A DNA stretch of 40,550 nucleotides from Elusimicrobiota bacterium (lineage in GTDB: Bacteria; Elusimicrobiota; Elusimicrobia; UBA1565; UBA9628): the NCBI GenBank assembly GCA_016191335.1, contig JACPOW010000128.1, positions 1-40,550 of the forward strand, given 5' to 3'. The notes under the pieces were generated by a model that made no database searches, was not told the DNA's origin, and saw nothing but the letters and a program-made list of their open reading frames with translations. Both the position numbers and the translations under genes were made by a program. How positions within the stretch are numbered: position 1 is the first letter of the stretch; each line of letters begins with the position of its first letter. Positions 10,654 through 37,559 of this stretch are shown piece by piece.

Positions 10654-10659
10654 TAGACT
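10654..10659 (+). promoter_or_regulatory. -10 element placed for a leaderless start
   Basis: TAGACT lies five bases before the ATG at 10665, so transcription would begin at or next to the start codon. No Shine-Dalgarno is present. No strong -35 is seen. Confidence 0.45.
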
Positions 10660-10664
10660 TGGCC

Positions 10665-12101
10665 ATGGCCGTCCTCCGCCCCGCGACCGAGACCGACCTC
10701 CCCGCGATCACCGAGATCTACAACCAGGCCGTCCTGCGCGCGACCGGCACCTTCGACACCGAGCCGAAGACCCTCGAGCAGCAGCGCGCCTGGTTCGCGG
10801 CGCACGGCGCCGGCCATCCCGTGATCGTCGCCGAGGAGGGCGGCAAGGTCATCGGCTGGGCCTCCCTGTCGCCCTACTCCGACCGCTGCGCGTACGCCCG
10901 CACCGCCGAGGTCTCCGTTTACATAGACGAGAGCGCGCGCGGCCGCGGCCACGGCGGGGCCTTGCTCGACGCGGTGCTCGCCGCCGGCGGCAAGGCCGGC
11001 CTCAAGCAGGTCCTCGCGCGCGTCACCGACGGCAACGAGGCGAGCCTGCGCCTGCACGCCAAGCGCGGCTTCTTCGAGGCCGGACGCCTGCGCCAGGTCG
11101 GGGAGAAGTTCGGCAAGGTGCTCGACGTCCATCTCCTCCAGAAGTCCCTGGCCCTGCTCCTCCTGCTGGCCGCGGCCCTCCCGGCGCGCGCCGGAGTCGA
11201 CGAGATCCTCCGTGAATCCGTCGTGCGCCTGACCGCCGGCGACGTCGCCGGCGCCCGGGCCAAGGCCGAGGAAGCCGTCGCCGCCGCTCCGCGCGACCCG
11301 CGGGCCAAGGAGCAGCTCGGCAACGTGGCCCTCGCCGGCCTCGACCCGAAGGCCGCGGAGGCCGCCGCCGAGCGCGCCCTGGCCGCCGGCGAGACCGTGT
11401 CGCGGCGCGTGCTGCGCGCCAACGCCCGCCTCACGGGCGGGAACATCGAGGGCGGCCTCGCCGACGCGCAGCGCGCCGTGATCCTGGCCCCCAACAGCGG
11501 CCAGGCCCGCCTGTCCCTGGCGGTCGCGTTGGAGCTGCTCGGCCGCCCCAAGTCCGAGGTCGTCGGCGAGTACCGCCGCGCCGCCGAGCTCGACCCCACG
11601 CAGGCGCCCGAGGTCGAGGCGGCTCTGCGCCGCCTGAACCCGCCCGCCGCCGCCCCCGCGGGCGCGCGCCTGGGGCCGATCCTCGTCATCCTCGCGGTGT
11701 CCGCCCTGTTCGGCTGGATCTTCGGCAAGGCCTCGAAGGCCGGCGAGGAGGGCGCCGCTCCGGAGGAGCCCTCCGCGTCGCCGCTGCTCCCCGGGTCCGG
11801 CCGCCTCTCGGCCCGCGAGGCCCTCGCGGCCGTGGACGCCGCGGCCAGGTCCGGCGCGCCCGACTCCCTGGCCCTCGCCGAGGCGCTGTACCGACGCCTC
11901 ACCGGACGCCCCGCCTTCCCGCGCGGCACCGACCGCGCCCTGGGCCGCTACCTGCCCGCGTCGGAATCGGCGAAGGGCCTGCCCGCCGGCATCGACGCCT
12001 TCTTCGCCCGCGCCCTCGACCCCGAGCCCTCGCGCCGCTTCTCCACCGCCGCCGAGCTCGTCGGCGCCTTCCGCTCCCTCGTCGACCCGCCCGTATTGTA
12101 A
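10665..12101 (+). CDS. GNAT acetyltransferase fused to TPR, membrane and kinase C-lobe remnant
   Basis: A 478-residue chimera. Residues 1-159 are a complete GNAT domain of the phosphinothricin/methionine-sulfone N-acetyltransferase type, with the acetyl-CoA loop ARGRGHGGALL and a family-like ending KVLDVHLLQKSL. Where such enzymes normally stop, the frame runs straight into a hydrophobic, signal-peptide-like segment (162-178, ending PARAG). TPR-like repeats (about 180-320), a second membrane helix (336-354) and a tail (about 385-478) follow. The tail reads like the end of a Ser/Thr kinase C-lobe: ALYRRLTGRPAF, then GIDAFFARALDPEPSRRFSTAAEL (442 on). The kinase N-lobe, HRD and DFG motifs are absent. 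An in-frame GTG at 11118 could start the second half separately. The GNAT assignment is firm; the kinase relic is an inference. Confidence 0.85.
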   Translation: MAVLRPATETDLPAITEIYNQAVLRATGTFDTEPKTLEQQRAWFAAHGAGHPVIVAEEGGKVIGWASLSPYSDRCAYARTAEVSVYIDESARGRGHGGALLDAVLAAGGKAGLKQVLARVTDGNEASLRLHAKRGFFEAGRLRQVGEKFGKVLDVHLLQKSLALLLLLAAALPARAGVDEILRESVVRLTAGDVAGARAKAEEAVAAAPRDPRAKEQLGNVALAGLDPKAAEAAAERALAAGETVSRRVLRANARLTGGNIEGGLADAQRAVILAPNSGQARLSLAVALELLGRPKSEVVGEYRRAAELDPTQAPEVEAALRRLNPPAAAPAGARLGPILVILAVSALFGWIFGKASKAGEEGAAPEEPSASPLLPGSGRLSAREALAAVDAAARSGAPDSLALAEALYRRLTGRPAFPRGTDRALGRYLPASESAKGLPAGIDAFFARALDPEPSRRFSTAAELVGAFRSLVDPPVL

Positions 12102-12110
12102 CGGCGGGTC
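12084..12110. terminator. hairpin between convergent genes
   Basis: GACCCGCCCGT (12084-12094) can pair with ACGGCGGGTC (12101-12110) with one bulged C and a six-base loop. It spans the stop of the GNAT fusion and lies 11 bases before the stop of the convergent gene. There is no T-tract, so termination in either direction is only plausible. Confidence 0.4.
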
Positions 12111-12121
12111 TGACCCCGACT

Positions 12122-13699
12122 TCAGTGCGGGGGAGGGAAGGGGCGGGGGTAGGAGGGGACGGTCTGCCACTTCGAGCGGTCGAGGGGCGCGCGCAGGAAG
12201 TAATCCACGACGCCGCCGACCGGCTCGCGGCCGAACTGGCGGCTCGACGGGATCTGGGGCAGGCGCACGAACAGGACGGCGAGCAGGTCCTCCCGGATCT
12301 CGTTCTCGAGCGGGGAGTATTCCCGTCCGGACGGCTCGGCGCCGAACGCGCCGGCCATGGTCAGCAGGTCGCCGCCGACGGCGATGAACGACGCGCGTGG
12401 GAAGCTGCGCGTCGGCTCCTCGCGCAGGGACCGGTAGATCTGCTCGCCGGCGGCCGGGTCCTTGATCCCCGCGGCCTTCGCGATGAGCTTGGCGATGACG
12501 GTCGGCGTCTTGCCGGTCTCCGGGAACCTCCAGCCCTGCTCGCGGACCGGGTCGGAGATCAGAGCGGTGCAGTTCTTGCTCGTCTTGTCGTACTTGAGCT
12601 CCTGCGAGTAGTACTTCGCGTACTGCGCCGTGAACGCCTCCTGGAACTTCGTCGGGACGCGCGCGTCCTTCATGACCATGACGAGCATGTACGACGGCCG
12701 GTACCAGCTCTGGCCGCTGTTCAGGTCGGTCATGTACTTGTCCATCGGCACCATGCTCGCGACGATCCCTTTCTCGCTGACGGTGTTCATGTCGTAGAAG
12801 TTGTCGAAGATCCAGTCCGCCATGCTCCCGCCGGGGCCGTAGCGGCCGGTGAAGAGGCTGGAGTGCCCGGCGAGGGCCTCGTCGTCGTCGCCCTGGGCGC
12901 CGTTGAGCATGAAGCCCATGACGGGCAGCCCTTCCCAGACGCGTGAAGTGCCAGGACGCTCCCAGAGGAGCCGCGTCTGGAATTCCTTCTTAGCGCCGCC
13001 CTTGTCGGCGGAGAGGAGCGCGTCGATGTCCGCCGCGTTCTTCGCGTCGGCTTCCTTCAGGTTCGCGGCGTCGATGCGGTAGTCCTCGGGCCAGATCGTG
13101 CGGGCGACGAGGACCTTCACGCCGTCCTTCTCGATCAACTCGCCGCGCACGCGCACGGTGCGGCCGCGCAGGTAGGCGAGGCTCGACGCGTCATAATAGG
13201 AACGGTTCGATTCGATCTTCTCCGTGAGGGCGAACGGCACCACCGTCCCGTCCTTCAGCCTCGCGGTGTGGCCGTCGGCCGACAAGGCCACGCCCTCGAA
13301 CATCTCGCGTGAGCCGAGCCAGACCAGGCCCGCGGGCCCGGACTTGGGAAAGGCGAGCTCGTCGTTCAGGAAGTACCACTTGCCCTCGACCGGGCCGTTG
13401 CAGGCGGCGCAGCGTCCGGTCCCGAGGCCGAAATCCGCCTCGGGGTAGAGGCCGAGGAAGCCGCTGGTGAGGCGGCGTACGGACTCCGCCGGGGCCGAGG
13501 CCGGGGCGGGCGCCTGCGCGGCGACGGGGACGAAGACAGGGCGCGGAAGGACCGGGGCGGCCTGGCGCCAGGTTCCCGCGACGGGGGCGGCGACGCCGGC
13601 GCCGAACAGGCGCGAGCCGTCGAAGACCGCGTCGGGGGCCGCGGACGCGCCGACGGCCAGGGCGAGGATCAGCGCGACGAGCCGGGGCAGGATCTTCAC
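12122..13699 (-). CDS. exported protein with papain-like His / Asn-Cys motif
   Basis: A 525-residue exported protein of unknown function. The signal peptide is residues 1-20 (ending ASA), followed by a Pro/Ala-rich stretch. The middle has CAACNG, a possible metal or disulphide site, and a strand-rich region. The second half has LAGHSSLFTGRYGPGG, then a long segment, then KYDKTSKNCTALISDP. A His followed much later by NC-T is the order seen in permuted papain-like families such as DUF4105-type periplasmic enzymes; I infer a possible cysteine hydrolase and cannot name the family. The GTG start at 13699 is chosen because a perfect TATAAT sits exactly six bases before it; the longer frame to 13717 would start inside the promoter. 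The gene is convergent with the GNAT fusion. Confidence 0.8.
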   Translation of the reverse strand: MKILPRLVALILALAVGASAAPDAVFDGSRLFGAGVAAPVAGTWRQAAPVLPRPVFVPVAAQAPAPASAPAESVRRLTSGFLGLYPEADFGLGTGRCAACNGPVEGKWYFLNDELAFPKSGPAGLVWLGSREMFEGVALSADGHTARLKDGTVVPFALTEKIESNRSYYDASSLAYLRGRTVRVRGELIEKDGVKVLVARTIWPEDYRIDAANLKEADAKNAADIDALLSADKGGAKKEFQTRLLWERPGTSRVWEGLPVMGFMLNGAQGDDDEALAGHSSLFTGRYGPGGSMADWIFDNFYDMNTVSEKGIVASMVPMDKYMTDLNSGQSWYRPSYMLVMVMKDARVPTKFQEAFTAQYAKYYSQELKYDKTSKNCTALISDPVREQGWRFPETGKTPTVIAKLIAKAAGIKDPAAGEQIYRSLREEPTRSFPRASFIAVGGDLLTMAGAFGAEPSGREYSPLENEIREDLLAVLFVRLPQIPSSRQFGREPVGGVVDYFLRAPLDRSKWQTVPSYPRPFPPPH

Positions 13700-13705
13700 C
13701 CGTTT

Positions 13706-13711
13706 ATTATA
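13706..13711 (-). promoter_or_regulatory. consensus -10 placed for a leaderless start
   Basis: TATAAT on the minus strand, six bases before the GTG at 13699. No good -35 is visible at 16-18 bases. The position leaves no room for a ribosome-binding site. Confidence 0.6.
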
Positions 13712-13807
13712 ACCCACCCGCGACCCGGTTCATCGGAAAGTTACCTTTCCTCCATGGCCGCGCGCCTTCCCGAGGGGTACCGTCTACATGAGGGCGGAGG
13801 GTTTCCT

Positions 13808-14323
13808 ATGAGACGACATACGCCGGACGCGTTCGACACGGCCGTGCAGAAGGGCAACATCTGGCTCAAGGACATCGAGCAGGCCGGCAAGCTGCGCAGC
13901 CGCTTCCAGGCCTACGCCGCGCTCCGCTCCGTGCTGCACGCCCTGCGCGACTGCCTCCCTCCCGCCGAGGCGGTCAAGTTCTCCGCCCAGATGCCGCTCC
14001 TGGTCAAGGGCGTGTTCTTCGACGGCTGGAAGGTGACGCCGAAGCCCCTGCGGATGACCCACGCCGAGTTCAACATCTACATCCGTCACGGGCTCAAGGA
14101 AGAGGGCGGGGTCGAGCCGGAGCTCGCCTTGAAGGCGGTGCTCGCCGCCGTGTGCCGCCACATCAGCCCGTCGGTGCTCGACACCCTCGAGCCCGTCCTC
14201 CCGCGCGAGGTCCACGCCGTGGTGCACGCGACGCTCGCGGGCATCCGCGCGGAGGAGGTCGTCAAGACGGCGGCCGCCGCGGATATCCAGTCCGCCGACA
14301 TGGGCGGGCCCTTCGGCGAGTAG
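13808..14323 (+). CDS. DUF2267 family protein
   Basis: A 171-residue soluble, mostly helical protein with two similar halves. The features AFDTAVQKGNIWLKDI, a RSVLHALRDCLPP stretch, SAQMPLLVKGVFFDGW and a second-half VLAAVCRHIS...LP match the DUF2267 family, whose role is unknown. The ATG at 13808 has GGAGG (13796-13800) seven bases upstream and gives the N-terminus usual for the family. An in-frame ATG at 13754 lies six bases after a TACCTT (13742-13747) and could be a leaderless alternative adding 18 residues; the same TACCTT would equally give a 54-base leader for the 13808 start. It ends one base before the convergent caspase gene. Confidence 0.85.
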   Translation: MRRHTPDAFDTAVQKGNIWLKDIEQAGKLRSRFQAYAALRSVLHALRDCLPPAEAVKFSAQMPLLVKGVFFDGWKVTPKPLRMTHAEFNIYIRHGLKEEGGVEPELALKAVLAAVCRHISPSVLDTLEPVLPREVHAVVHATLAGIRAEEVVKTAAAADIQSADMGGPFGE

Positions 14324-14324
14324 C

Positions 14325-15917
14325 CTAGCGCAGGCCGCCGTCGAGCGACCGTCCGAACGCCTGCGGCGTCTGCGCCCGGTTCTGCCGGCGCGCCTCGTCC
14401 TGGACGCGCGGCTTGAGCGCCGCGTACACCTCGCTCACCGTGCCGCGCCCCGCCGTCTCCGTCAGGGCCTTGAGCAGCTGATAGGTGAACAGGCCGTGGC
14501 CTTGCTCCTCCATGGCCCCGGTAATCTCGTCCGAGGACGAGGCGGATAGGGAGACGATCTTCCCTTCCGCCGGCCCGATGTCCATCTTGGCGACGAGCGG
14601 GCGCGTCCCCGTGGCGAGCACCGAGCGGCCGCCCGCCCCCGAGAAGCAGGAGTCGAGCGCGACGAGGACGCGCTTGGCCTTGAGCGCGGCGAGCTTGGCG
14701 TAGAGGCGCTTGATCGGATAGGCCGTCTCCTCCAGGTATTGAGGATCGCCGTCCATCGGGACGAGATACGCCTGCGAGGACTTCGCGTCGGGCGCGCCGT
14801 GGCCGGAGAAATAGAACATCACGGTGGACCTCTCGGTCACGTTGTTGGGCAGCCAGGCCTCGAGGTTCTTGACGAGGCCGGTCCTCGTCGCCTGGGGGCC
14901 GGTGAGCAGGACGATGTTGCGCTGGGGATAGCCCATGGCCAGGAGGTGGGCGTTCATCGCCCTGGCGTCGCGCTCCGCGAAGCGGGCCTCGGGCAAGGTG
15001 TTGTACTTCTCGACGCCGACGACGAGCGCGTAGGCGTCCGGGTTCTCGGAGACCTTGTACGAGGGCTGGTCCACGTCGGACTTGTACGAGACGGCGGCGG
15101 CCGGCGCGGAGGCCGGGCGCGCGGTCTCGGCGGCGGCCTCCCTCATCATCTGGGCGAGCTCGGCCTTGGTGACCCCGGCGGCGGCGGTCTGCGCCGCGGC
15201 CTGGGGCTTGTCGAGGCGCTCGAGGAGCTGGATGGCGGAGCTCTGCTTTTGGATGAAGTCCCGCGCGACCTGCCCGTTGCTCCCTATGGATTCCATGTTC
15301 CGGATGTTCTGCTGCAGGATGCTCCGCGCTTTCTCCACGTCGGCCCCCCGCGAGAGCAGAAGGCGGACGGCGTCGATGTTCCCGGCCTGGGCGAAGCTGG
15401 ACAGAGGGTTATAAGGCGTACCGCCGGCGCCGTCCACGGGGTATCCGGAGTCGAGGAAGAGCTTGATCACGGGGACGGTCTTCGCCATGTAGATCGCCGC
15501 TCCGCCGTAGCGGGTCGTGCCGTTGACCAGAGCGCCTTTGGCGATGAGGGCTTTGACGAGGTCCAGGTCGTCGCACCAGGCCGCGAGGTTCAAAGGGTTC
15601 TGTTCGTTGTACAAGCCGCTTTCGGACTTCGTGATCGCGGCGTTGACGTCGGCGCCGCCTTCCACGAGCCGCAGCGCGTCGGCCCGCCGGCTTTCGAGGA
15701 TGGCCATGATGAGCTGGCGTCCTTCGGGGTTCGCGGAGCGGATCTCCAGATTCTTGTCCTTGGCCAGGAGGGGGAAGATCTCCTCGCGGTTCTGGGCCAC
15801 CGTCGCCTTGAAGAGCGGGGTCCTGGTGGCCTGTATGGCGCCCCCGACGTAGCCGGAGAGGAGCGAGGAGCCGGAGACGAGAGCGATCAGCGCGGCCGCG
15901 AGGCGGAGGGGTCTCAT
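14325..15917 (-). CDS. exported ankyrin-repeat caspase (peptidase C14) protein
   Basis: A 530-residue protein with a signal peptide or anchor (1-25), several ankyrin repeats (about 35-215, with LVEGGADVNAAI and LLSRGADVEKA units), an Ala-rich linker and a C-terminal caspase domain (about 305-530). The catalytic His is H373 in FYFSGHGAPD and the Cys is C424 in ALDSCFSG, the normal order and spacing for metacaspase-like C14 enzymes, so activity is plausible. The fusion of protein-binding repeats and protease, with an export signal, points to an extracytoplasmic protease. The start at 15917 is fixed by a -35/-10 pair whose TATACT is six bases before the ATG; longer frames would cross the promoter. 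It diverges from the response-regulator operon. Confidence 0.9.
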   Translation of the reverse strand: MRPLRLAAALIALVSGSSLLSGYVGGAIQATRTPLFKATVAQNREEIFPLLAKDKNLEIRSANPEGRQLIMAILESRRADALRLVEGGADVNAAITKSESGLYNEQNPLNLAAWCDDLDLVKALIAKGALVNGTTRYGGAAIYMAKTVPVIKLFLDSGYPVDGAGGTPYNPLSSFAQAGNIDAVRLLLSRGADVEKARSILQQNIRNMESIGSNGQVARDFIQKQSSAIQLLERLDKPQAAAQTAAAGVTKAELAQMMREAAAETARPASAPAAAVSYKSDVDQPSYKVSENPDAYALVVGVEKYNTLPEARFAERDARAMNAHLLAMGYPQRNIVLLTGPQATRTGLVKNLEAWLPNNVTERSTVMFYFSGHGAPDAKSSQAYLVPMDGDPQYLEETAYPIKRLYAKLAALKAKRVLVALDSCFSGAGGRSVLATGTRPLVAKMDIGPAEGKIVSLSASSSDEITGAMEEQGHGLFTYQLLKALTETAGRGTVSEVYAALKPRVQDEARRQNRAQTPQAFGRSLDGGLR

Positions 15918-15923
15918 GCCGAG

Positions 15924-15952
15924 AGTATACATCCGCCCTTCCTTGTTGACAA
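15924..15952 (-). promoter_or_regulatory. promoter of the caspase gene, leaderless geometry
   Basis: On the minus strand: -35 TTGTCA (15952-15947), 17-base spacer, -10 TATACT (15929-15924), then six bases to the ATG at 15917. Confidence 0.75.
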
Positions 15953-15962
15953 TGCGTCCCCA

Positions 15963-15992
15963 TGGACAACTTCCACGGCGAATTGATACATT
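15963..15992 (+). promoter_or_regulatory. promoter of the response-regulator/fixCX operon, leaderless geometry
   Basis: -35 TGGACA (15963-15968), 18-base spacer, -10 TACATT (15987-15992), then six bases to the ATG at 15999. It lies back to back with the caspase promoter, so an 81-base gap serves both directions. Confidence 0.7.
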
Positions 15993-15998
15993 CCGCCC

Positions 15999-16373
15999 AT
16001 GGCCAAGAAAGTCCTCGTTATCGACGATGAACCCGAGATGCTCGCGCTCGTGAAGTACACCCTCGAGCACGGCGGCTTCGAGGTCCACACCTGCGACAAC
16101 GGGCGCCACGCCTGGGACGAGATCGCCAAGGTCAAGCCCGACGTCCTCATCCTCGACGTCATGCTCCCGGGCATCGACGGCTACTCGCTGCAGCTCAAGA
16201 TCGCGGCGGAGCCCACGACGAAGGACCTCCCCATCGTCGTCCTCACGGCCCTCGAGCCGTCCAAGACCCTTTTCCAGAAGTTCCCGCAGGTCGTGGGCTT
16301 CATGACCAAGCCTTTCAAGACGGAAGAGCTCCTGAAGACGGTGCAGGACGCCTCCGCGAAGATCGCGGGGTGA
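15999..16373 (+). CDS. single-domain response regulator (CheY-like receiver)
   Basis: A 124-residue stand-alone receiver domain with no output domain. The acidic pocket is D9-D10, the phosphorylated Asp is D53 in LILDVMLPG, and the conserved Thr (VVLTAL) and Lys (MTKPF) are present, so it should accept phosphate from a histidine kinase. No kinase is in the window. Its stop is seven bases before fixC, so it is co-transcribed with an electron-transfer module, an unusual partner for a lone receiver. The start is set by the promoter geometry. Confidence 0.95.
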   Translation: MAKKVLVIDDEPEMLALVKYTLEHGGFEVHTCDNGRHAWDEIAKVKPDVLILDVMLPGIDGYSLQLKIAAEPTTKDLPIVVLTALEPSKTLFQKFPQVVGFMTKPFKTEELLKTVQDASAKIAG

Positions 16374-16380
16374 GGATCAC

Positions 16381-20253: not shown

Positions 20254-21639
20254 TTAGAAGGAGTAGTTGATGTCCATGAAGACCGCCAGGCCGTCGCGGC
20301 CCACGCCGAAGTCGACGGAGCCGACGACCTGGGGCTTGGCGACCGCGCGGACCGCGGCGCCGACGACGGGCCGGGCGTAGCGCGCCGCGGCGCGGCCGGG
20401 GTTGTCGAAGACCTCGCCCATGCCGATGAAGGGGGCGAGCTGGAGCTCGGTCGTCACGCCGGCGGTCTTGGCCTCGTAGACCTTGAAGCGCTGCTCGACG
20501 TTCACCGTGGCCATGCCCCGGTCGATGTAGCGTCCGTCGCCGTAGGCGCGCAGGCTGTACTTGCCGCCGAGGCGGGACTGGACCCAGAACGGGGCGGGCG
20601 GGCCGAGAAGCTGCTCGTACTTGGCCTGGACGGCGAAGACCTTGTCCTTGTCCGATTCCCAGGGGCGGAACCAGCGGGCGTCGAGGCCGTAGCGGCTGTA
20701 GTCGTACTGGCTCTCGAAGCCCCGGATCGCGAACTCGGCGAAAGACTTGACCAGCACGCCGCGGCCGGTCGTGACGCCGTGGTCGCGGGTGTCGTAGTCG
20801 AGGCTGAAGCGGTTCTCGTTGACCTGCTGATAGCGGCGGGAGAGCTGGCCGGGGAAGGAGCGCGCGAAATCGGGGAGGTTGGGCAGGGAGCCCTCGGTGA
20901 AGCGGCCGGACTGGTAGTGCTTGGAGTAGCGGACGCGCCAGGGAGAGCCGTGGGCGAGGGGCACGCCGCCGCCGAGCCGGTACTGGGTGTACTCCTCGCG
21001 GTAGTTCGACTCGGCGTGCTTGGACGAGTCGGGGCCGAAGCCGAAGAAGCGCTGGCCCGCGTCCACGTTGTACTGCAGGCGGGCGTAGATGTCGAAGGCG
21101 GTGCCGAGGAAGCTCCCGTCCTCGTATTCGCCGAGGGCCTCGCGCTCGAACTTCGAGTAGGACGCGCGGGCGATGAAGGTGGCGTCCTCCTGGGGGTAAT
21201 AATAGAAGCGGTAGGTCGGGATGACCTGGAAGTTCTTGTTGTAGGTCAGCGAGGGGGCGTGGATCTGCTGGATGCGGTCGTCGTTCTGTCCTTGGAGGAC
21301 CCAGATCGGCATGACGCCGATCGTGACGCCGCGGTTGGGGTCCGTGTCCATGATGGGCAGGCGGATGAACATGCCCCGCCGGAGGGGCCTGATCATCCAA
21401 CGGACGATGCGCGGGGTCTCGTCCTGCTTGGGCGCCTGCTGCATGGTCGTCGGGAAGTGCCGCTCGGGGGCGACCTCCCCGGAATCGGCGTCGCCGCCGC
21501 CGCGCCCCGGATTGGGGTTGGCCACGGCGGCCTTGGCGGGATGTTTGGTCCGCTTCTTGACGGGGCGGGCATCGGCCGCGGCCGCGCCGGTCGCGGCGCA
21601 GGCCAACAGAAGCGCGAGGCAGGCGTGTCGGAGTTTCAC
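20254..21639 (-). CDS. outer-membrane beta-barrel protein, BamA/Omp85-like surface antigen
   Basis: A 461-residue outer-membrane protein: signal peptide (1-22, ending AAAA), a basic and Gly/Asp-rich linker, then alternating strands for the rest. The stretch LGGKYSLRAYGDGRYIDRG followed by VNVEQRFKV matches the conserved barrel region of the D15/BamA surface-antigen family (LRGY-type motif), and the protein ends in Phe, the usual outer-membrane sorting signal. No POTRA domains precede the barrel, so it is a barrel-only member and not BamA itself. The GTG start at 21639 gives a clean signal peptide and lies seven bases after a TAAAAT -10. Its cargo or substrate is unknown. Confidence 0.85.
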   Translation of the reverse strand: MKLRHACLALLLACAATGAAAADARPVKKRTKHPAKAAVANPNPGRGGGDADSGEVAPERHFPTTMQQAPKQDETPRIVRWMIRPLRRGMFIRLPIMDTDPNRGVTIGVMPIWVLQGQNDDRIQQIHAPSLTYNKNFQVIPTYRFYYYPQEDATFIARASYSKFEREALGEYEDGSFLGTAFDIYARLQYNVDAGQRFFGFGPDSSKHAESNYREEYTQYRLGGGVPLAHGSPWRVRYSKHYQSGRFTEGSLPNLPDFARSFPGQLSRRYQQVNENRFSLDYDTRDHGVTTGRGVLVKSFAEFAIRGFESQYDYSRYGLDARWFRPWESDKDKVFAVQAKYEQLLGPPAPFWVQSRLGGKYSLRAYGDGRYIDRGMATVNVEQRFKVYEAKTAGVTTELQLAPFIGMGEVFDNPGRAAARYARPVVGAAVRAVAKPQVVGSVDFGVGRDGLAVFMDINYSF

Positions 21640-21646: not shown

Positions 21647-21674
21647 ATTTTATCATTTACGCCGCTCCCGACAA
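21647..21674 (-). promoter_or_regulatory. promoter of the outer-membrane protein gene
   Basis: On the minus strand: -35 TTGTCG (21674-21669), 16-base spacer, -10 TAAAAT (21652-21647), then seven bases to the GTG at 21639. It overlaps the 3' end of queG. Confidence 0.55.
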
Positions 21675-29192: not shown

Positions 29193-29221
29193 ATTATGGA
29201 ACGCGCGGGGGGTCCTGTCAA
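29193..29221 (-). promoter_or_regulatory. promoter of the pilin-like/uvrB unit
   Basis: On the minus strand: -35 TTGACA (29221-29216, perfect), 17-base spacer, -10 CATAAT (29198-29193), ten bases before the ATG at 29182. The leader would be only a few bases long. Confidence 0.7.
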
Positions 29222-29243
29222 GCCTCGGCTAAAGAGGTAGAAT
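29215..29243 (+). promoter_or_regulatory. promoter of the DEAD-box helicase gene, leaderless geometry
   Basis: -35 CTGTCA (29215-29220), 17-base spacer, -10 TAGAAT (29238-29243), six bases before the GTG at 29250. Its -35 overlaps that of the divergent promoter almost completely, so the two should compete for polymerase. Confidence 0.65.
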
Positions 29244-29249: not shown

Positions 29250-30647
29250 GTGAAATCTTTCGAGGACCTGAAGCTGAGCGCCCCCCTGGCCCGCGCGATC
29301 GCGGAGCTGGGCTACAGCGCGCCGACCGAGATCCAGCAGCAGGCTCTGCCGATCCTCCTCGGCGCTCCCACCGACTTCATCGGCCAGGCCGCCACCGGCA
29401 CGGGCAAGACCGCCGCGTTCGGCATCCCCCTGCTCGAGCAGGTCGACCCCCATAAGAAGCACGTCCAGGGCCTGATCCTCTGCCCGACGCGCGAGCTCGC
29501 CGTCCAGGTCTCCGGCCAGATCAACCTCTTCGGCAAGCACAAGGGCGTCAAGGCGGTCCCGATCTACGGAGGGGCGAGCTACGCCGCCCAGCTCGACGGC
29601 CTGAAGCACGGCGCGGCCATCGTCGTCGGCACCCCCGGGCGCATCATCGACCTCATCGACCGGGGCGCCCTCAAGCTCGCCGGGGTCCGCACCGTCGTCC
29701 TCGACGAGGCCGACGAGATGATCTCGATGGGCTTCAAGGAAGATCTGGAGAAGATCCTCAAGGCGACGCCGCGGGAGACCGGCCACATCTGGCTGTTCTC
29801 CGCGACGATGAGCCCGGGCGTGCGGCGCGTGGCGGACACCTACCTGCGCAAGCCCAGGCAGGTGCAGATCAACCGCGGAGAGATGCTCTCGACGACCGTC
29901 GAGCAGATCTACTACCTGGCGCGCGAGTCCGACAAGGTGGACCTGATCGTCAAGATCATCGAGTCGTCCGACGAGTTCTACGGCCTCGTGTTCTGCCAGA
30001 CCAAGGCGCTGGTCATGGACGTCCAGCAGGCCCTGACGGTCCGCGGCTACAAGGTGGACTCCCTCCACGGCGACAAGTCCCAGCACGACCGCGACCGCAC
30101 GATGAACGCCTTCCGCGAGAAGAAGCTGACCATGCTCGTCTGCACCGACGTGGCCTCGCGCGGGCTCGACGTCAAGGAGCTCACGCACGTCATCAACTTC
30201 TCCATCCCGCGCGAGATGGACGTGTACGTCCACCGCATCGGCCGCACGGCGCGCAGCGGCAAGGCGGGCCTGGCGATCAGCCTCGTCAGCCCGAGCAATC
30301 GGCACATGATCAGCCGCATCGAGCACATGACCAAGAGCCGGATGAAGGAGGGGAAGATCCCCACCCGGCAGGAGATCGGCGCCCGGAAGGTGGCCAAGAT
30401 CCTGACCGCCTTCCAGGAGAAGGAGAAGTACTTCCGCGCCGCCGAGTTCCTCGGCCCCGATTGGGAGCTGGCCACGGACGAGATGGACCTCAAGGAGATC
30501 ATCGCCCGCTTCCTGTGCCTGCTCACGCCGGAGACCTTCGAGGACGCCAAGCCCGCCGCCCCGCTTCCTTCAATAGCGGCCAAGCCGCCGTCGCCGTACC
30601 ACCGCAAGCCGGACCATAAAGGCCATTACAAGAAGCGCCCTCACTGA
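29250..30647 (+). CDS. DEAD-box ATP-dependent RNA helicase
   Basis: RNA helicase of the DeaD/CsdA/RhlE type, likely acting in ribosome assembly or mRNA remodelling. The 465-residue protein has the Q motif (SAPTEIQQQALP), motif I ATGTGKT, Ia PTRELA, GG and TPGR, II DEAD, III SAT, then the second RecA domain with LVFCQTK, TDVASRGLDV and HRIGRTAR. After the core comes a moderate C-terminal extension and a basic, His/Pro-rich tail (KPPSPYHRKPDHKGHYKKRP) that may bind RNA. It begins with GTG six bases after the -10, with no Shine-Dalgarno. Its last seven bases overlap the end of the convergent small gene. Confidence 0.96.
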   Translation: MKSFEDLKLSAPLARAIAELGYSAPTEIQQQALPILLGAPTDFIGQAATGTGKTAAFGIPLLEQVDPHKKHVQGLILCPTRELAVQVSGQINLFGKHKGVKAVPIYGGASYAAQLDGLKHGAAIVVGTPGRIIDLIDRGALKLAGVRTVVLDEADEMISMGFKEDLEKILKATPRETGHIWLFSATMSPGVRRVADTYLRKPRQVQINRGEMLSTTVEQIYYLARESDKVDLIVKIIESSDEFYGLVFCQTKALVMDVQQALTVRGYKVDSLHGDKSQHDRDRTMNAFREKKLTMLVCTDVASRGLDVKELTHVINFSIPREMDVYVHRIGRTARSGKAGLAISLVSPSNRHMISRIEHMTKSRMKEGKIPTRQEIGARKVAKILTAFQEKEKYFRAAEFLGPDWELATDEMDLKEIIARFLCLLTPETFEDAKPAAPLPSIAAKPPSPYHRKPDHKGHYKKRPH

Positions 30648-31047: not shown

Positions 31048-31056
31048 TGATAGAAT
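31048..31056 (+). promoter_or_regulatory. extended -10 for the aldo/keto reductase gene, leaderless geometry
   Basis: TGA-TAGAAT (31048-31056) is an extended -10 (TGn plus TANNNT), which fits the absence of a -35. TAGAAT ends six bases before the GTG at 31063. Confidence 0.6.
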
Positions 31057-31062
31057 GCCCGC

Positions 31063-31992
31063 GTGCGGATGAACCCACTCGGCCGGTCCGGTCTTTCCGT
31101 GTCCGCGCTCTCGCTCGGCACGATGAACTTCGGCGCGGACTGGCACGGGGTCGGCGCGATCGACGACAAGGCCGCGTCCTCTTTGATCGACCTGGCGCTG
31201 GAGCGCGGCGTGAACCTCATCGACACCGCGGACATCTACGGCCGCGGCGCGGCGGAGGAGATGCTCGGCCGGATCCTCAAGGGCCGCCGCAAGAAGGTCC
31301 TTCTCGCGACCAAGGTGCTCGGCCAGATGGACCTGGACGACCCGTCCACCGGCGGCCTGTCCGCGCGCTGGGTCAAGAAGGCGCTCGACGCCAGCCTCAA
31401 GCGCCTGAAGACCGACCATGTCGACCTGTACATGCCGCACGGCTGGGACCGCGAGGTCCCGCTCGAGGAGACGCTGAAGGCCCTTGAGTCGGCCGTCAAG
31501 GCGGGGAAGGTCCGGGTCCCCGGCTGCTCGAACTTCTCCGGCGAGCAGCTGGCCTCCGCGCGCGGGCGCTTCGCCTTCGACCAGGTGCAGTACAGCCTCG
31601 CCGCGCGCTTCCCCGAGAACGACCTCGTGCCGGTCGCGGAGCGCGACGGGGTCTCTTTGGTCTCGTGGAGCCCTCTGGCGGGGGGGCTGCTCAGCGGCAA
31701 GTACGCCTCGGCGGCGGCGTCCGGGCGGCGGACGAGCGCGGACGCCTTCCCATACGTGGAGCCGCAGCGCGGGGCGGCTTTGGTCAAGGTCCTCCGGGCG
31801 GTCGCCGCCCTCGAGGGCTCGACCTGCGCGCAGGCCGCCCTCGGCTGGATCATGGGCAAGCCGTTCGTCGCGTCGGCGACCCTCGGCGCGCGCACGACGG
31901 CGCAGCTGAGCGAGCTGCTGGACGCGAAACCCCTTTCGCCGCGCGCGGCGGCGCTGCTCGACCGCGCCTCGGAGCTATGTTCTCGGCCCTGA
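31063..31992 (+). CDS. aldo/keto reductase
   Basis: NADPH-dependent oxidoreductase with a TIM-barrel fold. The 309-residue protein carries the catalytic tetrad of the family: Asp and Tyr in LIDTADIYG, Lys in LLATKVLG, and His in DLYMPHGWD. Other signatures are GxSNFS (GCSNFSGEQL), VQYSL and SWSPLAGGLLSGKY. The substrate is not predictable; the sequence resembles the general stress-type subgroup. The GTG at 31063 is chosen by its position after the -10; ATG at 31069 is two codons in. It overlaps the MFS gene by 16 bases. Confidence 0.95.
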   Translation: MRMNPLGRSGLSVSALSLGTMNFGADWHGVGAIDDKAASSLIDLALERGVNLIDTADIYGRGAAEEMLGRILKGRRKKVLLATKVLGQMDLDDPSTGGLSARWVKKALDASLKRLKTDHVDLYMPHGWDREVPLEETLKALESAVKAGKVRVPGCSNFSGEQLASARGRFAFDQVQYSLAARFPENDLVPVAERDGVSLVSWSPLAGGLLSGKYASAAASGRRTSADAFPYVEPQRGAALVKVLRAVAALEGSTCAQAALGWIMGKPFVASATLGARTTAQLSELLDAKPLSPRAAALLDRASELCSRP

Positions 31993-33167: not shown

Positions 33168-33226
33168 GCCTTATGGCCCATTTCTGTCTGGGCCCTCGGG
33201 CCCTCTCCGATGGGCCCCGTCGGCCC
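33167..33226. repeat. cluster of GGCC/GGGCCC inverted repeats, possible terminator
   Basis: After the MFS stop, GGCC-TTAT-GGCC (33167-33178), GGCCCA (33175-33180) pairing with TGGGCC (33189-33194), and three copies of GGGCCC (33190, 33198, 33212) offer several competing hairpins. There is no T-tract. It may end the reductase/MFS transcript. Confidence 0.35.
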
Positions 33227-33249
33227 GTGCGCGGTGGCGGCGGGGCGGC

Positions 33250-33255
33250 TACAAT
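33250..33255 (+). promoter_or_regulatory. -10 placed for a leaderless start
   Basis: TACAAT, six bases before the ATG at 33262. No ribosome-binding site fits between them. The -35 is not clear. Confidence 0.55.
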
Positions 33256-33261
33256 GTCGGT

Positions 33262-33588
33262 ATGAGCTCCATGGAGATGTACATCAAGTTCATGTTCACC
33301 CTCACGGTCGGCCTCGTGGGCGTCGGCATGGTGCTCAAGACCCTCCTCGAGACGATCCTCCACGAGTGGGACGCGGTCGGCGAGATCCGGGCCGGCTGGC
33401 ATTCGATGTTCCACGCCCGCCCCTACGCCGATTCGGTGCGCGCCGAGGACATCCTGATGGAGATCGAGCGCGATCACGTCAAGAAGCGGACCCCCGCCCA
33501 CGAGCTGGACCGCCGCCGCGAGGCGCTGCGCGACCTGCGCGAGGCCGAAAGCCGCCTGTCCTCTCCCGCCGTCGCCGAAGTCGCGTAA
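33262..33588 (+). CDS. small membrane protein of unknown function
   Basis: A 108-residue protein with one or two hydrophobic helices at the N-terminus (about 7-32), followed by a soluble, charged helical tail (ERDHVKKRTPAHELDRRREA and on). No family is recognised. The -10 TACAAT six bases before the ATG supports it as a real, separately transcribed gene. It precedes the large coiled-coil protein, which has its own -10. Confidence 0.7.
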   Translation: MSSMEMYIKFMFTLTVGLVGVGMVLKTLLETILHEWDAVGEIRAGWHSMFHARPYADSVRAEDILMEIERDHVKKRTPAHELDRRREALRDLREAESRLSSPAVAEVA

Positions 33589-33624
33589 GCCCGCCCCTCG
33601 CTGGCGCGGCCGCGACGCTTTCGG

Positions 33625-33630
33625 TACACT
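33625..33630 (+). promoter_or_regulatory. -10 placed for a leaderless start
   Basis: TACACT, five bases before the ATG at 33636. The -35 is weak. Confidence 0.5.
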
Positions 33631-33635
33631 GAGTC

Positions 33636-36600
33636 ATGAGCCTTGAAACGCGCGCGTCCGCGTGGCGCCGGCAGCGCCGGCGCGCCCTCGTCCTCGAAGC
33701 CGCGGCCCGCGCCTTGGGCTGGGGGCTCGCCGCGGCGGCGGCCATGGCGGCGGCCGACGGCCTCCTCTCCCTGCCGCAGCGGTTCCGGCTCGCGGCGTGG
33801 CTGGCGGGGGCCGCGGCCCTCGCCGTGCACGCCTGGCGGGCGTTGATCGTCCCCTGGCGCGCGGTCGATTGGGAGTCGGTCTTCGCCGACGCCGCCCGCC
33901 GCTGGCCCGAGACCCGCGCGATGCTCGCCCCGGCCTGGGCGCTGCGCTCCGAGAGCGGCGGCCGCGACGTGTCCGCGGAGCTGCGGCGAGAGCATCTCGC
34001 GCGGGCCGACGCCCTGGCGGCGAGGCTCCCCGGCGAGCCGCTGTACGCGTGGGTCCCGTCTCGCCCGGCCCGCGCCGGCGCCGCGGCCGCGGCCTTGGCC
34101 CTCGCGCTCTCCCTGGGCGCGCGCGGCTCCTGGACGCGGGTGCTGGCCCCCTGGCGCGACGCGCCGCTCGACCGCCTCGTCGTGCTCCTTCCCGGCGACG
34201 CGAGCGTGGATCAAGGGGCGTCGGCCGCGCTGACCGCGCGCCTGACGCCCGAGGGCGTCGCCTCGGGCCTGCGCGGCGCGGACCTCTCGCTCGAGACGCG
34301 CGGCGAGGACGGGGGCTGGAGGACGGCTCCGTGGGGCGCGGCGGACGCGGTCTCCGCCTCGGTCGAGACCGGCGCGCTGGCCGGGCCGCTCGATTACCGG
34401 GCCCGGAGCCGAGGCCTCGTCACCTCCACGCGGCGCCTGCGCGCGGTGCCGGCCCCGCGCCTCGAGGAGGCGAAGGCCGTCGTCCACGGCGCCCGCGGCA
34501 CGAGGACCTTCGCGCTCGGCGTGGACGCCCCGGTGCGCGCCCGGCGCGGCGACTGGGTGACGGTGCGCGGCGGCTCCGCCGCCCCCATCGCCTCGGCCGC
34601 GCTTCGGCTGTCCTCGCTCCCGGCGCCGATCCCGATGCGGGAGGAAGGCGGCTCGTGGTCGGCGGGCTTCCTGGCCCAGGAGGACGCGGCGCTGTCCGTG
34701 GACCTCGTCGCGGCGGACGGGCGGCGCGACCCGTCGCCGCCCTCCTACGCGCTGAGCGTCGCCGGCGACGGCAAGCCGACGGTCGAGCTCCTGTCGCCCC
34801 AGGTCCCGCTGCAGGCCGGGCCGCGCGACACGGTCACGATCGCCTACTCCGCGCGCGACGACGGCGCCCTGACGCGCCTCGAGCTCGTCGTCGCTCCCCG
34901 GGGCGCGGCTCTCCGCCGGCGGGCGCTGCCGATCGACCGCGGCTCGTCGGAGACGCTGGGCGACGCCGCGCTCGCGCTGCGCGACCTCGCCCCGGGCGGC
35001 GCCGTCGAGTTCTGGCTCGAGGCGTCCGACGACGCCTCTCCGCCGCAGTCCGCGCGCTCCGAGAAGGGCTCGGTCGAGATCGTCGACGCCGACGCCGAGC
35101 ACGCCGTGGCGCTCGCGGCGCGCGAGCGGGCGCTCGCCGCGCTCGACCGGGCCGCCGCCGCGGCCGAGGCGGCCGCGAAGGCCGCCGCCTCCGGCGACGA
35201 GGACGCCGCGCGCGAGGCGGCCCGGCCCGTCAACGGCCTTTGGTCGGCCGCCGCCGGCGCCCTGATGGCGTGGAACGACGCGATGCGCGACGACCCGCGC
35301 GCCAACCCCGGCCTCGCCGACCAGGCCGCGGCCGCCGCCGAGAGCCTGGCCGCCGCGGGGATGGAGGGCCTTCCGAAGGCGGAGGCCGCGCTGAAGGAGC
35401 GCGACCTCCCGCGAGCCGCCCGCGAGCAGTCGGCGCTGGCCGAGCAGGCGCGCGCCGCCTCGGCCGCCCTGAAGGCGGGCGCGAGCGTGCAGAACGCGCA
35501 GGACATGTCCGACCGCGCCTTCGACGCCGAGCGCGAGGGCCGCGAGCTCGGCGACTCGATCGAGCGCCTGAAGGGGAGCATGTCCCCGGCCGAGGCGGCC
35601 GACCTGCAGAAAGCGCTGTCCTCCGTCGACGCGGCCCTCGAGGAGCTGCGCAAGTCCATCGACTCCCTTCCGGTCGCCTCCGAGGAGACCGCGAAGGTCC
35701 GCGAGCTCCCGCTCGAGGGCGCGCGCGAGGCCGCGTCCACCCTGCGCCGCGCCCTGCAGAGCGGCGACGCCGCCGGCGCCGCGAAGGCGGCCAAGGAGCT
35801 CGCGGAGAAGCTGTCCCGCGTCGCCAAGGGCCTGCGCGAATCCGGCGCGCGCGCGGCCCGATCCCAGGGGGGCCGCGCCAAGGAGGCGTCCGGCAAGGTG
35901 GCGCAGGCCTGGCGCGAGGCCGTGGCTCGCCAGGAGAAGGCCGTCGAGGCCGCGCGCCGCCGCGAGAGCGCGCGCCTCGCGGCGACGGTGCGCGCGCAGA
36001 AGGAGCTCCTCCTCCAGACGCAGGACGCGATCGACACCGCGCTGGCGTCCGCGCCCGCCGCCGAGGCGGAGCGCGCGGCCCGAGCGGCGCGGGAGAGCCT
36101 CAATGGGGGGCGGGCGGACGAGGCGGCCCGGCTCATGCGCGCCGCCGCCGGCCAGTCCCGCCAGGCGTCCCTGTCCGACCGGGCCCGCTCCGCGGCGCAC
36201 GAGGCGGCCGCGAAGACCCTCGACGACGCCGCCGCCGCGCTCGAGCGCGGGGTCACGGGCCCGGCCCTCGACCCGGCGGCGACGCGCGAGGCCGCCGACA
36301 TCCAGGCGACGGCGCGGGAGTCGGCGGGCCGCCTGCGCCGCGCGGTCTCCGACGCGGCCGGCGTCCTCGGCCTCATGCCCGGCGGCCCGGTGCGCCGCAT
36401 CGACGACGCGATGTCCGAGCAGGAGGCGGGGGAGAGGTCCCTGCGCGCCGGCGACGCGGCCGAGGGCCTGCGGCGCGGCGAGGCCGCGCTCGCCATCCTC
36501 CAGGACGACAAGGGCGCCTCCGAGGACGAGCCCGGCGGCGGCTCCGGCGGGGGCGGCGACGCCTTGAGCCGGCCCTTCGAGATCCCGGGCGGCGCCGTGC

Positions 36601-36776
36601 GCTCCGCGCCGCGCGGCGCGCGCGGCAGCGCCACCGGCCGCGTGCGCCTGCCCACCGCCGACGAGTACCGCCCCCCGCGCGAGCTGCGCGAGGAGCTCGA
36701 GCGCTCCCTGCGCGAGCCCCGCCCCGCCGCCCACGACTCCGCCATCAAGGAATACTTTCGCCGCCTGACCCGCTAA
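33636..36776 (+). CDS. large DUF4175-like membrane and coiled-coil protein
   Basis: A 1046-residue protein. Three hydrophobic segments near the N-terminus (about 23-42, 50-68, 145-163) are followed by beta-rich, Ig-like periplasmic domains (about 180-490), then about 450 residues of Ala/Glu/Arg-rich helix with heptad character, a Gly-rich break (DEPGGGSGGGGD) and a C-terminal motif PPRELREELERSL...IKEYFRRLTR. This layout, and the ending of the type PP-xY-R...YF--L, resembles DUF4175 proteins of other phyla; the assignment is tentative. Very high Ala/Arg content gives long open frames on the opposite strand, which I judge to be shadows. The function is unknown; an envelope-spanning structural role is plausible. 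Confidence 0.75.
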   Translation: MSLETRASAWRRQRRRALVLEAAARALGWGLAAAAAMAAADGLLSLPQRFRLAAWLAGAAALAVHAWRALIVPWRAVDWESVFADAARRWPETRAMLAPAWALRSESGGRDVSAELRREHLARADALAARLPGEPLYAWVPSRPARAGAAAAALALALSLGARGSWTRVLAPWRDAPLDRLVVLLPGDASVDQGASAALTARLTPEGVASGLRGADLSLETRGEDGGWRTAPWGAADAVSASVETGALAGPLDYRARSRGLVTSTRRLRAVPAPRLEEAKAVVHGARGTRTFALGVDAPVRARRGDWVTVRGGSAAPIASAALRLSSLPAPIPMREEGGSWSAGFLAQEDAALSVDLVAADGRRDPSPPSYALSVAGDGKPTVELLSPQVPLQAGPRDTVTIAYSARDDGALTRLELVVAPRGAALRRRALPIDRGSSETLGDAALALRDLAPGGAVEFWLEASDDASPPQSARSEKGSVEIVDADAEHAVALAARERALAALDRAAAAAEAAAKAAASGDEDAAREAARPVNGLWSAAAGALMAWNDAMRDDPRANPGLADQAAAAAESLAAAGMEGLPKAEAALKERDLPRAAREQSALAEQARAASAALKAGASVQNAQDMSDRAFDAEREGRELGDSIERLKGSMSPAEAADLQKALSSVDAALEELRKSIDSLPVASEETAKVRELPLEGAREAASTLRRALQSGDAAGAAKAAKELAEKLSRVAKGLRESGARAARSQGGRAKEASGKVAQAWREAVARQEKAVEAARRRESARLAATVRAQKELLLQTQDAIDTALASAPAAEAERAARAARESLNGGRADEAARLMRAAAGQSRQASLSDRARSAAHEAAAKTLDDAAAALERGVTGPALDPAATREAADIQATARESAGRLRRAVSDAAGVLGLMPGGPVRRIDDAMSEQEAGERSLRAGDAAEGLRRGEAALAILQDDKGASEDEPGGGSGGGGDALSRPFEIPGGAVRSAPRGARGSATGRVRLPTADEYRPPRELREELERSLREPRPAAHDSAIKEYFRRLTR

Positions 36777-36782
36777 CCGAAA

Positions 36783-36854
36783 GGGGTCAGGCACGCAAAT
36801 TCGTCGAATTCTCCGCCCCGTTCCCGAATTCAACGAATTTGCGTGCCTGACCCC
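36783..36854. repeat. 72-bp palindromic REP/MITE-like element
   Basis: A 29-base left arm (36783-36811, begins GGGGTCAGGCACGC) is the inverted copy of the right arm (36826-36854, ends GCGTGCCTGACCCC) with one mismatch, around a 14-base loop. The outer GGGGTCAGGC/GCCTGACCCC ends resemble palindromes that accompany IS200-like REP-associated tyrosine transposases. No transposase is in the window. It can also form a strong RNA hairpin and might act as a terminator for the gene before it. Confidence 0.85.
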
Positions 36855-36887
36855 AGGCGGGGGCGTCACCTGGCGTAGTGCGTTAGC

Positions 36888-36893
36888 TATAAT
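36888..36893 (+). promoter_or_regulatory. consensus -10 placed for a leaderless start
   Basis: TATAAT, six bases before the ATG at 36900. The region at -35 reads GTCACC, a poor match. Confidence 0.6.
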
Positions 36894-36899
36894 CAGGGC

Positions 36900-37559
36900 A
36901 TGTCATTCCAAGGGACCATCGAGGCGAACTGTCCGAACTGCACGGACGGGTTCGACGCGCCGATCTGGAGCTTCGTGCACGGCGGCAAGGACGTGATCCT
37001 GCGCGACCAGGCCAAGGCCATGGAGTGCAACCTCCTGCTCTGCCCGTCGTGCGGCGCGGCCTTCCTTCCCGAGGCGGCGTGGATCTACTACGAGCCGGAC
37101 GACGAGATCCTCGCCTTCGTGTTCCCCCTGGCGTTCAAGGCCGAGGAGGCGAAGTGGCGCGAGAAGATGTCGGCCGACTTCGCCGCGATGCGCGGGGCGC
37201 TCGGCGACCATCTGCCGGTCGGCCACGAGCCCGAGGTGTTCTTTGGCCCCGAAGGCCTCGCGCAGCTCCTCGAGCTCGAGGATTGGCGCCGCGACGAGCG
37301 CGACGTGATGGCGTTCTTCGCGAAGGACCTCAAGCTCGGCGTCTACAAGGCGAGCCCGTCGTGGGCGCGCGAGAACGCCGCTCCGTCCTGGCTCCCTTTC
37401 GAAGGCAAGAAGCCGACGCGCGAATCGGTCGTCGCGGGGATCAGGAAGCTCCTCGCGGCCAACGACCGGCTCACGGCGTGGGCCGATTACCTGGCGAAGC
37501 TGGAGAAGCTGGAGAAGGACCCGTCGGCGGGCCTTCCGCCCGCCGCGCTGGCGGCCTAG
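36900..37559 (+). CDS. CpXC domain protein
   Basis: A 219-residue soluble protein. The N-terminus has paired zinc-finger-like motifs, ANCPNC and LLLCPSCGAAFLP, matching the CpXC family, whose role is unknown. A region with the segment YYEPDDEILAFVFPL follows and then a helical C-terminal half. The ATG is positioned six bases after a perfect TATAAT. The stop overlaps the start of the CCA-adding enzyme gene (TAGTG), suggesting co-translation. Confidence 0.85.
   Translation: MSFQGTIEANCPNCTDGFDAPIWSFVHGGKDVILRDQAKAMECNLLLCPSCGAAFLPEAAWIYYEPDDEILAFVFPLAFKAEEAKWREKMSADFAAMRGALGDHLPVGHEPEVFFGPEGLAQLLELEDWRRDERDVMAFFAKDLKLGVYKASPSWARENAAPSWLPFEGKKPTRESVVAGIRKLLAANDRLTAWADYLAKLEKLEKDPSAGLPPAALAA

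What the first reader, a model, noticed from the sequence alone, without database searches (positions are those of the whole stretch)
10654..36902. Recurrent -10 box exactly six bases before start codons: leaderless transcription as a common mode
Seven genes have a TANNNT hexamer ending six bases before the start codon: starts at 13699(-), 15917(-), 15999, 29250, 31063, 33262 and 36900. Two have five bases (10665, 33636), one clear case has seven (21639-), and 6802(-) is a weaker seven-base case. Several also have a -35 at 16-18 bases (15917, 15999, 29250, 21639). Bacterial transcription begins about 6-8 bases after the -10, so these mRNAs would begin at the start codon. Three use GTG (13699, 29250, 31063) and the rule picks it over nearby alternatives. 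Genes inside operons instead use Shine-Dalgarno sites or 1-4 base overlaps. Leaderless genes are known in Deinococcus and Actinobacteria; I do not know of a description for this lineage.
Basis: partly seen in the sequence, partly recalled or inferred. Interest (0 to 1): 0.75.

Follow-up and report, generated by a model that had tools for sequence, protein, structure and literature searches.

The report
Leaderless gene starts in Elusimicrobiota
In this uncultured bacterium, many genes have their promoter so close to the start codon that the messenger RNA should begin with the start codon itself, a known style of gene start that relatives in four families share and other sampled branches of the phylum mostly lack.

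Summary
Ten of the eleven listed sites are exact TANNNT boxes five to seven bases before a start; 6802(-) is not. The window is one contig of a 3.66 Mb Elusimicrobiota MAG. In a 1.01 Mb sample (801 usable genes, called without upstream signals), TANNNT ends six bases before the start in 95 genes, against a mean of 5 in dinucleotide shuffles, maximum 11. At that spacing ATG/GTG in the gene's frame number 123, against 5 in the two other frames and about 10 in frame at longer spacings. The sites show -35 elements at 17 bp, an extended -10 G, C before the start codon and almost no TTG starts. They favour transcription-unit heads: 78 of 187 divergent genes, 22 of 384 close same-strand genes.

Counts in 149 whole Elusimicrobiota genomes show the spacing excess in four families of the class (61 of 65 genomes above 1.5-fold) and in 2 of 84 others.

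Best reading: sigma-70 promoters making leaderless mRNAs, a mechanism known from Actinobacteria and Deinococcus-Thermus. No description for this phylum was found in the searches made. No transcript data exist here. The same families have a short S1 protein, but the link is unproven.

The parts
13706..13711 (-). -10 box TATAAT, six bases before GTG 13699(-); gene 12122-13699, no Pfam match
15924..15929 (-). -10 box TATACT, six bases before ATG 15917(-); gene 14325-15917, ankyrin repeats plus caspase-like Peptidase_C14; coding-only start was 15932
15947..15952 (-). -35 element TTGTCA for 15917(-), 17 bp spacer
15987..15992 (+). -10 box TACATT, six bases before ATG 15999; gene 15999-16373, response regulator; divergent from 15917(-)
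15963..15968 (+). -35 element TGGACA for 15999, 18 bp spacer
29238..29243 (+). -10 box TAGAAT, six bases before GTG 29250; gene 29250-30647, DEAD-box helicase; a box at 5-7 bases is present before the GTG of seven named Elusimicrobiota orthologues
29215..29220 (+). -35 element CTGTCA for 29250, 17 bp spacer
31051..31056 (+). -10 box TAGAAT, six bases before GTG 31063; gene 31063-31992, aldo/keto reductase; start choice uncertain (in-frame ATG at 31069, coding-only start 31099)
33250..33255 (+). -10 box TACAAT, six bases before ATG 33262; gene 33262-33588, no Pfam match
36888..36893 (+). -10 box TATAAT, six bases before ATG 36900; gene 36900-37559, CpXC protein
10654..10659 (+). -10-like TAGACT, five bases before ATG 10665; ORF to 12101, GNAT acetyltransferase plus TPR; coding-only start was 10659
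33625..33630 (+). -10-like TACACT, five bases before ATG 33636; gene 33636-36776, 1046 aa, no Pfam match, found in 17 of 19 family genomes
21647..21652 (-). -10 box TAAAAT, seven bases before GTG 21639(-); gene 20254-21639, Omp85
21669..21674 (-). -35 element TTGTCG for 21639(-), 16 bp spacer

Best explanation
About one gene in six in the sampled part of this genome, and about two in five of the divergently oriented ones, is driven by a sigma-70-type promoter whose -10 box ends six (sometimes five or seven) bases before the start codon. RNA polymerase then starts at, or one base from, the first base of ATG or GTG, so the mRNA has no leader and no room for a Shine-Dalgarno site; ribosomes would start on the 5'-terminal start codon. 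Shown by sequence: the promoter anatomy, its fixed spacing, its reading-frame dependence, its preference for transcription-unit heads and its distribution in the phylum. Inferred: that transcripts really begin there and are translated without a leader.
For: Positional peak: 95 of 801 at six bases, 38 at seven, 12 at five, background 4.5; shuffles mean 5.15, maximum 11 in 100 rounds. Frame control at six bases: ATG in frame 91, other frames 2 and 3; GTG 32, other frames 0 and 0; TTG 0, other frames 0 and 3. ATG plus GTG in frame average 9.5 at spacings 12-24, the fairer in-frame background. Logo of the 95 sites: G at -14 in 71%, A at -9 in 67%, TTG-like -35 at a 17 bp spacer; C at -1 in 70 of 95 against 278 of 656 genes without a box, p 1e-8. 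In the 38 seven-base genes the C sits at -2 (79%), as if tied to the promoter. TTG starts: 1 of 133 at six or seven bases, 78 of 668 others, p 9e-6. Box in 78 of 187 divergent and 22 of 384 same-strand genes under 30 bases away. Helicase orthologues: 12 of the 17 examined rows labelled Elusimicrobia, Elusimicrobiota or only 'bacterium' have a box at 5-7 bases before the aligned start (one gene). Whole genomes: own 112 TANAATN6ATG against 14 at spacing 12; complete genome CP096137.1 478 TANNNTN6ATG against 133 at spacing 12.
Against: No transcript 5' ends or protein N-termini for this organism. The gene caller is my own and the sample covers 1.01 of 3.66 Mb. In the 12 five-base genes the C is at -1 in all 12, so the C is not simply fixed relative to the box. 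Five of the 17 helicase rows lack a box at 5-7 bases (L074, L075, L083, L086, L147) and five have it before a TTG start, where a transcript would begin with U or carry a short leader. The seven-base class fits a one-base leader at least as well as none. TANNNT boxes 12-60 bases upstream also carry 17 bp -35 elements (26 of 217), so leadered promoters exist too.
Confidence: 0.88

Rival explanations
1. The motif is an AT-rich, S1-binding or unstructured ribosome-entry patch in a leadered mRNA (the non-SD mode proposed for Bacteroidetes and others), not a promoter.
For: AT- or U-rich upstream bias that might be leaderless promoter signal or S1 binding is discussed for several phyla (passages of PMC5397173).
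Against: The free positions of the logo show a sigma-70 -10 with an extended -10 G and a -35 at 17 bp. The box favours transcription-unit heads; a ribosome-entry patch would be needed inside operons as well.
Confidence: 0.05
2. For part of these genes the promoters are real but the mRNAs carry very short leaders (1-6 bases), or translation begins at a nearby downstream start. This can hold for a subset beside the best explanation.
For: Seven-base class with C at -2; TTG orthologues; an in-frame ATG two codons after GTG 31063.
Against: The six-base class outnumbers the seven-base class 95 to 38, and its base preferences put a pyrimidine-purine initiator pair on the start codon.
Confidence: 0.3
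3. The alignment of TANNNT with starts is chance or an artefact of picking starts by eye.
Against: Starts were chosen by coding potential alone; shuffles, wrong-frame codons and other spacings do not reproduce it.
Confidence: 0.01

Closest known systems
Leaderless ('TA-led') genes of Actinobacteria
   Same: TANNNT about 12 bases upstream of the start, counted from its first T; 19.2% of genes on average in the 86 of 89 genomes where found (PMC3160421 passages). GTG works well in leaderless mRNAs of some actinobacteria (PMC9031893 passages).
   Different: Different phylum. The survey's text does not contain 'elusi'; its supplements were not readable.
-10 region adjacent to ORFs in Deinococcus-Thermus
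   Same: TANNNT next to ORFs shown by experiment to act as the -10 of leaderless genes, with spacing requirements (PMC12340547 passages).
   Different: There about 30-40% of ORFs and all analysed species of the phylum; here about 16% of sampled genes above background and only part of the phylum.
GeneMarkS-2 class of bacterial leaderless genomes
   Same: Genomes mixing promoter-near starts with SD sites; 21.6% of bacterial species predicted to use leaderless transcription (PMC9581028 passage).
   Different: The original paper was not held, so whether Elusimicrobiota are among those species could not be checked.

Membership tests
Bacterial leaderless genes (promoter-near, 'TA-led') | sigma-70 -10 box at fixed spacing so that +1 falls on the start codon | tested here: met
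   95, 38 and 12 of 801 genes at six, seven and five bases; frame control; shuffles
Bacterial leaderless genes (promoter-near, 'TA-led') | no Shine-Dalgarno site at these genes | tested here: inconclusive
   2 of 145 have both, but the box itself fills most of the stretch searched, so the test is largely forced
Bacterial leaderless genes (promoter-near, 'TA-led') | found mainly at single or first genes, rarely inside operons | tested here: met
   78 of 187 divergent, 22 of 384 same-strand under 30 bases apart
Bacterial leaderless genes (promoter-near, 'TA-led') | transcript 5' end on the start codon | not testable with these tools
   no RNA data; initiator base preference only
Bacterial leaderless genes (promoter-near, 'TA-led') | translation from a 5'-terminal start codon | not testable with these tools
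   needs ribosome profiling or N-terminal proteomics
sigma-70 promoter | -35 element about 17 bp upstream of the -10 | tested here: met
   20 of 133 sites have at least 4 of 6 TTGACA at 17 bp; other spacers from 8 to 27 have 0-7
AT-rich non-SD initiation without promoter (Bacteroidetes-like) | diffuse AT-rich upstream bias without fixed hexamer or spacing (definition recalled) | tested here: not met
   sharp hexamer and spacing with G or C favoured at several positions

The most novel reading that the evidence does not exclude
Inside one phylum, a leaderless mode of gene expression became common in one group of families (f1-f4 here, sampled GC 39-69%), together with reduction of the S1-type ribosomal protein from about 570 residues with 5-6 detected domains to about 400 residues with 1-3. 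The sampled long-S1 families mostly lack the promoter signal. If the two are linked, the phylum is a natural experiment on how bacteria move from leadered to leaderless translation.
Probability: 0.3. Interest if true: 0.6.

Novelty: new member of a known kind. Interest (0 to 1): 0.45.

Why it matters
It adds part of a poorly studied phylum to the lineages that appear to use leaderless mRNAs widely, and it suggests that the trait changes within a phylum. Cultured or co-cultured members would allow a test: Endomicrobium proavitum (1,588,979 bp in PMC4505116, whole text; the same length as G023's only contig) as a negative, the amoeba culture behind CP096137.1 as a positive, and an f3 isolate, probably Elusimicrobium minutum (identity recalled), as a weak positive. 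In practice the -10 box can mark the true start codon, including GTG; that gene callers tuned to SD sites miss some of these is my inference.

Tried and rejected
Chance and hand-picking: rejected by shuffles, wrong-frame codons and spacing controls.

AT-rich ribosome-entry patch: rejected, see rivals.

S1 shortening as the cause: not established. In the tree, seven of the ten short rows from f1-f4 form one group (support 94/98, just under the tool's own mark), so this may be one event. The other three (G084, G110, G045 'a' copies) are a second S1-like type; the f7 row sits on a long branch. The G084 'b' row was picked on the wrong strand and means nothing. One search had 6 of 20 rows missing and one wrong ORF; its tree is not used. 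The window's genome itself has a second S1-like match (350 aa). Some f10 genomes have no full-length S1 match (for example G017, best E 1.2e-16) and no excess (104 against 109); f11 and f13 have listed open frames of 455-494 aa and ratios of 1.03 and 1.14. That Deinococcus-Thermus have long S1 is recalled, not tested.

Results that blur the picture: family f8 (long S1) has a ratio of 1.89 on 51 against 27, but 400 against 376 with TANNNT; f5 has 449 against 365 and f7 570 against 509 with TANNNT. TANNNT is unclear in AT-rich genomes: G034 913 against 823, and the presumed negative G023 834 against 716. In the 100 kb samples f3 showed only a small peak, and G094 of the window's own family a weak one. 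Three f4 genera (g16, g18, g19) have ratios of 1.20-1.26. TANAATN6GTG exceeds its reversed control 3.1- to 8-fold in four f1 genomes, 2.6-fold in f2, 1.7- to 2.3-fold in three f4 genomes, 1.0- to 1.1-fold in three f3 genomes and 0.7- to 1.6-fold in the other 11; no spacing-12 control was run for GTG, and the reversed control is a poor one, since negatives also exceed it with ATG.

tblastn of the 1046-aa protein against plasmids: no match.

Full report
WHAT THE WINDOW IS. The window is contig C105 of a genome of 3,659,579 bases in 135 contigs. The DEAD-box helicase at 29250 has its closest relatives in MAGs labelled Elusimicrobia or Elusimicrobiota (89-98% identity for the best five). A complete genome of the GTDB order UBA1565 (CP096137.1; PMC9476967, whole text) has a 71% identical copy. 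No call names the window's own order.

THE LISTED SITES. Ten of eleven are exact; 6802(-) is not. Against a background of 4.5 hits per position in 801 genes, about 0.2 are expected at six bases in the window's 36 genes with complete 5' ends.

GENOME-WIDE TEST. I sampled 60 stretches plus the window (1,009,333 bases) and called 845 genes by codon usage only. 44 with an open 5' end or under 100 bases of upstream sequence were dropped, leaving 801. TANNNT counts by distance to the start show one peak: 12, 95 and 38 at five, six and seven bases. Dinucleotide shuffles of the 50 upstream bases gave a mean of 5.15 and a maximum of 11 at six bases in 100 rounds. As a second control I counted ATG, GTG and TTG at each distance after any TANNNT near gene starts, by frame. 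At six bases the gene's frame had 91 ATG, 32 GTG and 0 TTG; the other two frames together had 5, 0 and 3. Because the gene's frame holds real starts at any spacing, its own background is higher: 9.5 ATG plus GTG on average at spacings 12-24. Internal in-frame start codons show no peak (13,200 codons).

PROMOTER ANATOMY. At the 95 six-base sites the unconstrained positions show G at -14 (71%), A at -9 (67%), T, T and G at -35 to -33 (38, 41, 44%) and C at -1 (74%). The -35 match count peaks at the 17 bp spacer (20 of 133; other spacers from 8 to 27 have 0-7). C at -1 is 70 of 95 against 278 of 656 genes without a box (p 1e-8). In the 38 seven-base genes C sits at -2 (79%); in the 12 five-base genes it stays at -1 (12 of 12), so it is not simply fixed to the box. 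TTG, which would start a transcript with U, is the start codon in 1 of 133 six- or seven-base genes and 78 of 668 others.

PLACE IN OPERONS. A box at five to seven bases occurs in 78 of 187 divergent genes, 30 of 104 same-strand genes 30-100 bases apart, 12 of 102 further apart, 22 of 384 under 30 bases apart, and 3 of 24 with no called neighbour upstream in the stretch. SD-like sites (five 5-mers, bases -17 to -4) are in 21, 14, 16, 76 and 4 of these. Both occur in 2; this near exclusion is largely forced, because the box fills most of the stretch searched.

ORTHOLOGUES. Around the helicase start I looked at 23 of the 80 fetched loci: all 12 labelled Elusimicrobia or Elusimicrobiota, five of the six labelled only 'bacterium', and six of the rest. 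L069-L073, L105 and L110 have a box five to seven bases before a GTG (L069 is 98% identical in protein and says little). L076, L077, L079, L081 and L082 have one six bases before a TTG. L074, L075, L083, L086 and L147 have none. Of the six others (L078, L084, L088, L091, L094, L102), one has a box at the aligned start (L078) and one only at an upstream GTG (L091). This is one gene.

THE PHYLUM. Whole-genome counts of TANAATN6ATG against the same pattern at spacing 12, in 149 genomes of at least 75% completeness, the own one included: f1 625 to 192 (7 of 7 genomes above 1.5-fold), f2 91 to 24 (1 of 1), f3 6006 to 2610 (42 of 43), f4 1950 to 1011 (11 of 14). In the other 18 families (84 genomes) the median is 1.12, and 2 of 84 exceed 1.5 (f7 79 to 47, f8 51 to 27; one genome each). 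Only one control spacing was used, and relatedness makes the rank test (p 3e-24) overstated. Base -1 of the first listed six-base matches is T in 52 of 78 in three f3 genomes and 9 of 52 in two f6 genomes; in two of the f3 genomes at spacing 12 it is T in 14 of 52. So f3, presumably the gut family (recalled), also shows an initiator-like preference. CP096137.1 has 478 TANNNTN6ATG against 133 at spacing 12.

S1 PROTEIN. The rpsA matches listed have open frames of about 400-440 aa in f1-f4 (profile positions about 4-347), apart from one of 840 aa in G084, which also has a short one. They are 564-600 aa in f5, f6, f8 and f9, and mostly 520-690 aa in f10; f11 and f13 have 455-494. The list was cut, so some genomes' matches were not seen. 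Pfam finds 1, 2, 3 and 3 separately significant S1 domains in the short proteins of the window's genome, f2, f3 and f4, 2 in f7, and 6, 6, 5 and 5 in four long ones (f6, f8, f9, f10). A review reports that bS1 is not required for leaderless mRNA translation (PMC9031893 passages). The match is suggestive, but may rest on one event, and some f10 genomes without a full-length S1 match lack the promoter signal.

LITERATURE. A search for leaderless with Elusimicrobi gave two papers. One lists the anti-SD type of Elusimicrobia and Endomicrobia as CCUCCUUU (PMC10783764 passages). The other names the phylum in an unrelated table (PMC7448276 passages). Elusimicrobi with Shine-Dalgarno gave five papers (only PMC10783764 was opened). 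None of the 15 papers listed (of 24,351 holding at least three of its five terms) holds the phylum name. The 2011 survey found leaderless genes in 207 of 953 bacterial genomes, pools 20 genomes as 'other bacteria' (8 with leaderless genes), and its text does not contain 'elusi' (PMC3160421 passages). The 2025 study scanned species across bacteria (PMC12340547 passages). Supplements could not be read and most subscription papers are not held, so an entry for this phylum in a table cannot be excluded.

VERDICT. A real and strong signal of a known kind: promoter-near starts that imply leaderless mRNAs. Its spread over one group of Elusimicrobiota families and its weakness or absence in the others is the part worth keeping.

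Noticed in passing
window 14325-15917 (-): Caspase-like (Peptidase_C14) protein with ankyrin repeats belongs to a family with many copies: 16 matches in the window's genome and 34 in one relative (G157), with matches in 18 of 19 family genomes.
   Followed up: partly
window 33636-36776 (+): 1046-aa protein without any Pfam match at E 0.001, found in 17 of 19 genomes of the family, 16 of them with a single match; main matches outside the own genome are 25-74% identical. No match in the plasmid collection.
   Followed up: partly
window 29250-30647 (+): The DEAD-box helicase has many 50-70% identical relatives in MAGs labelled Bdellovibrionales, Oligoflexia and the like, interleaved by score with Elusimicrobiota copies; lateral transfer is possible.
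   Followed up: no
L237 364-2664 (G084), L236, L238: A second S1-like protein type exists in families f1 and f4; in G084 its open frame is 766 aa, so it may be fused to another domain.
   Followed up: no
L076, L077, L079, L081, L082, upstream of 1501: Helicase orthologues with a -10 box six bases before a TTG start, against 1 of 133 TTG at such sites in the window's genome.
   Followed up: no
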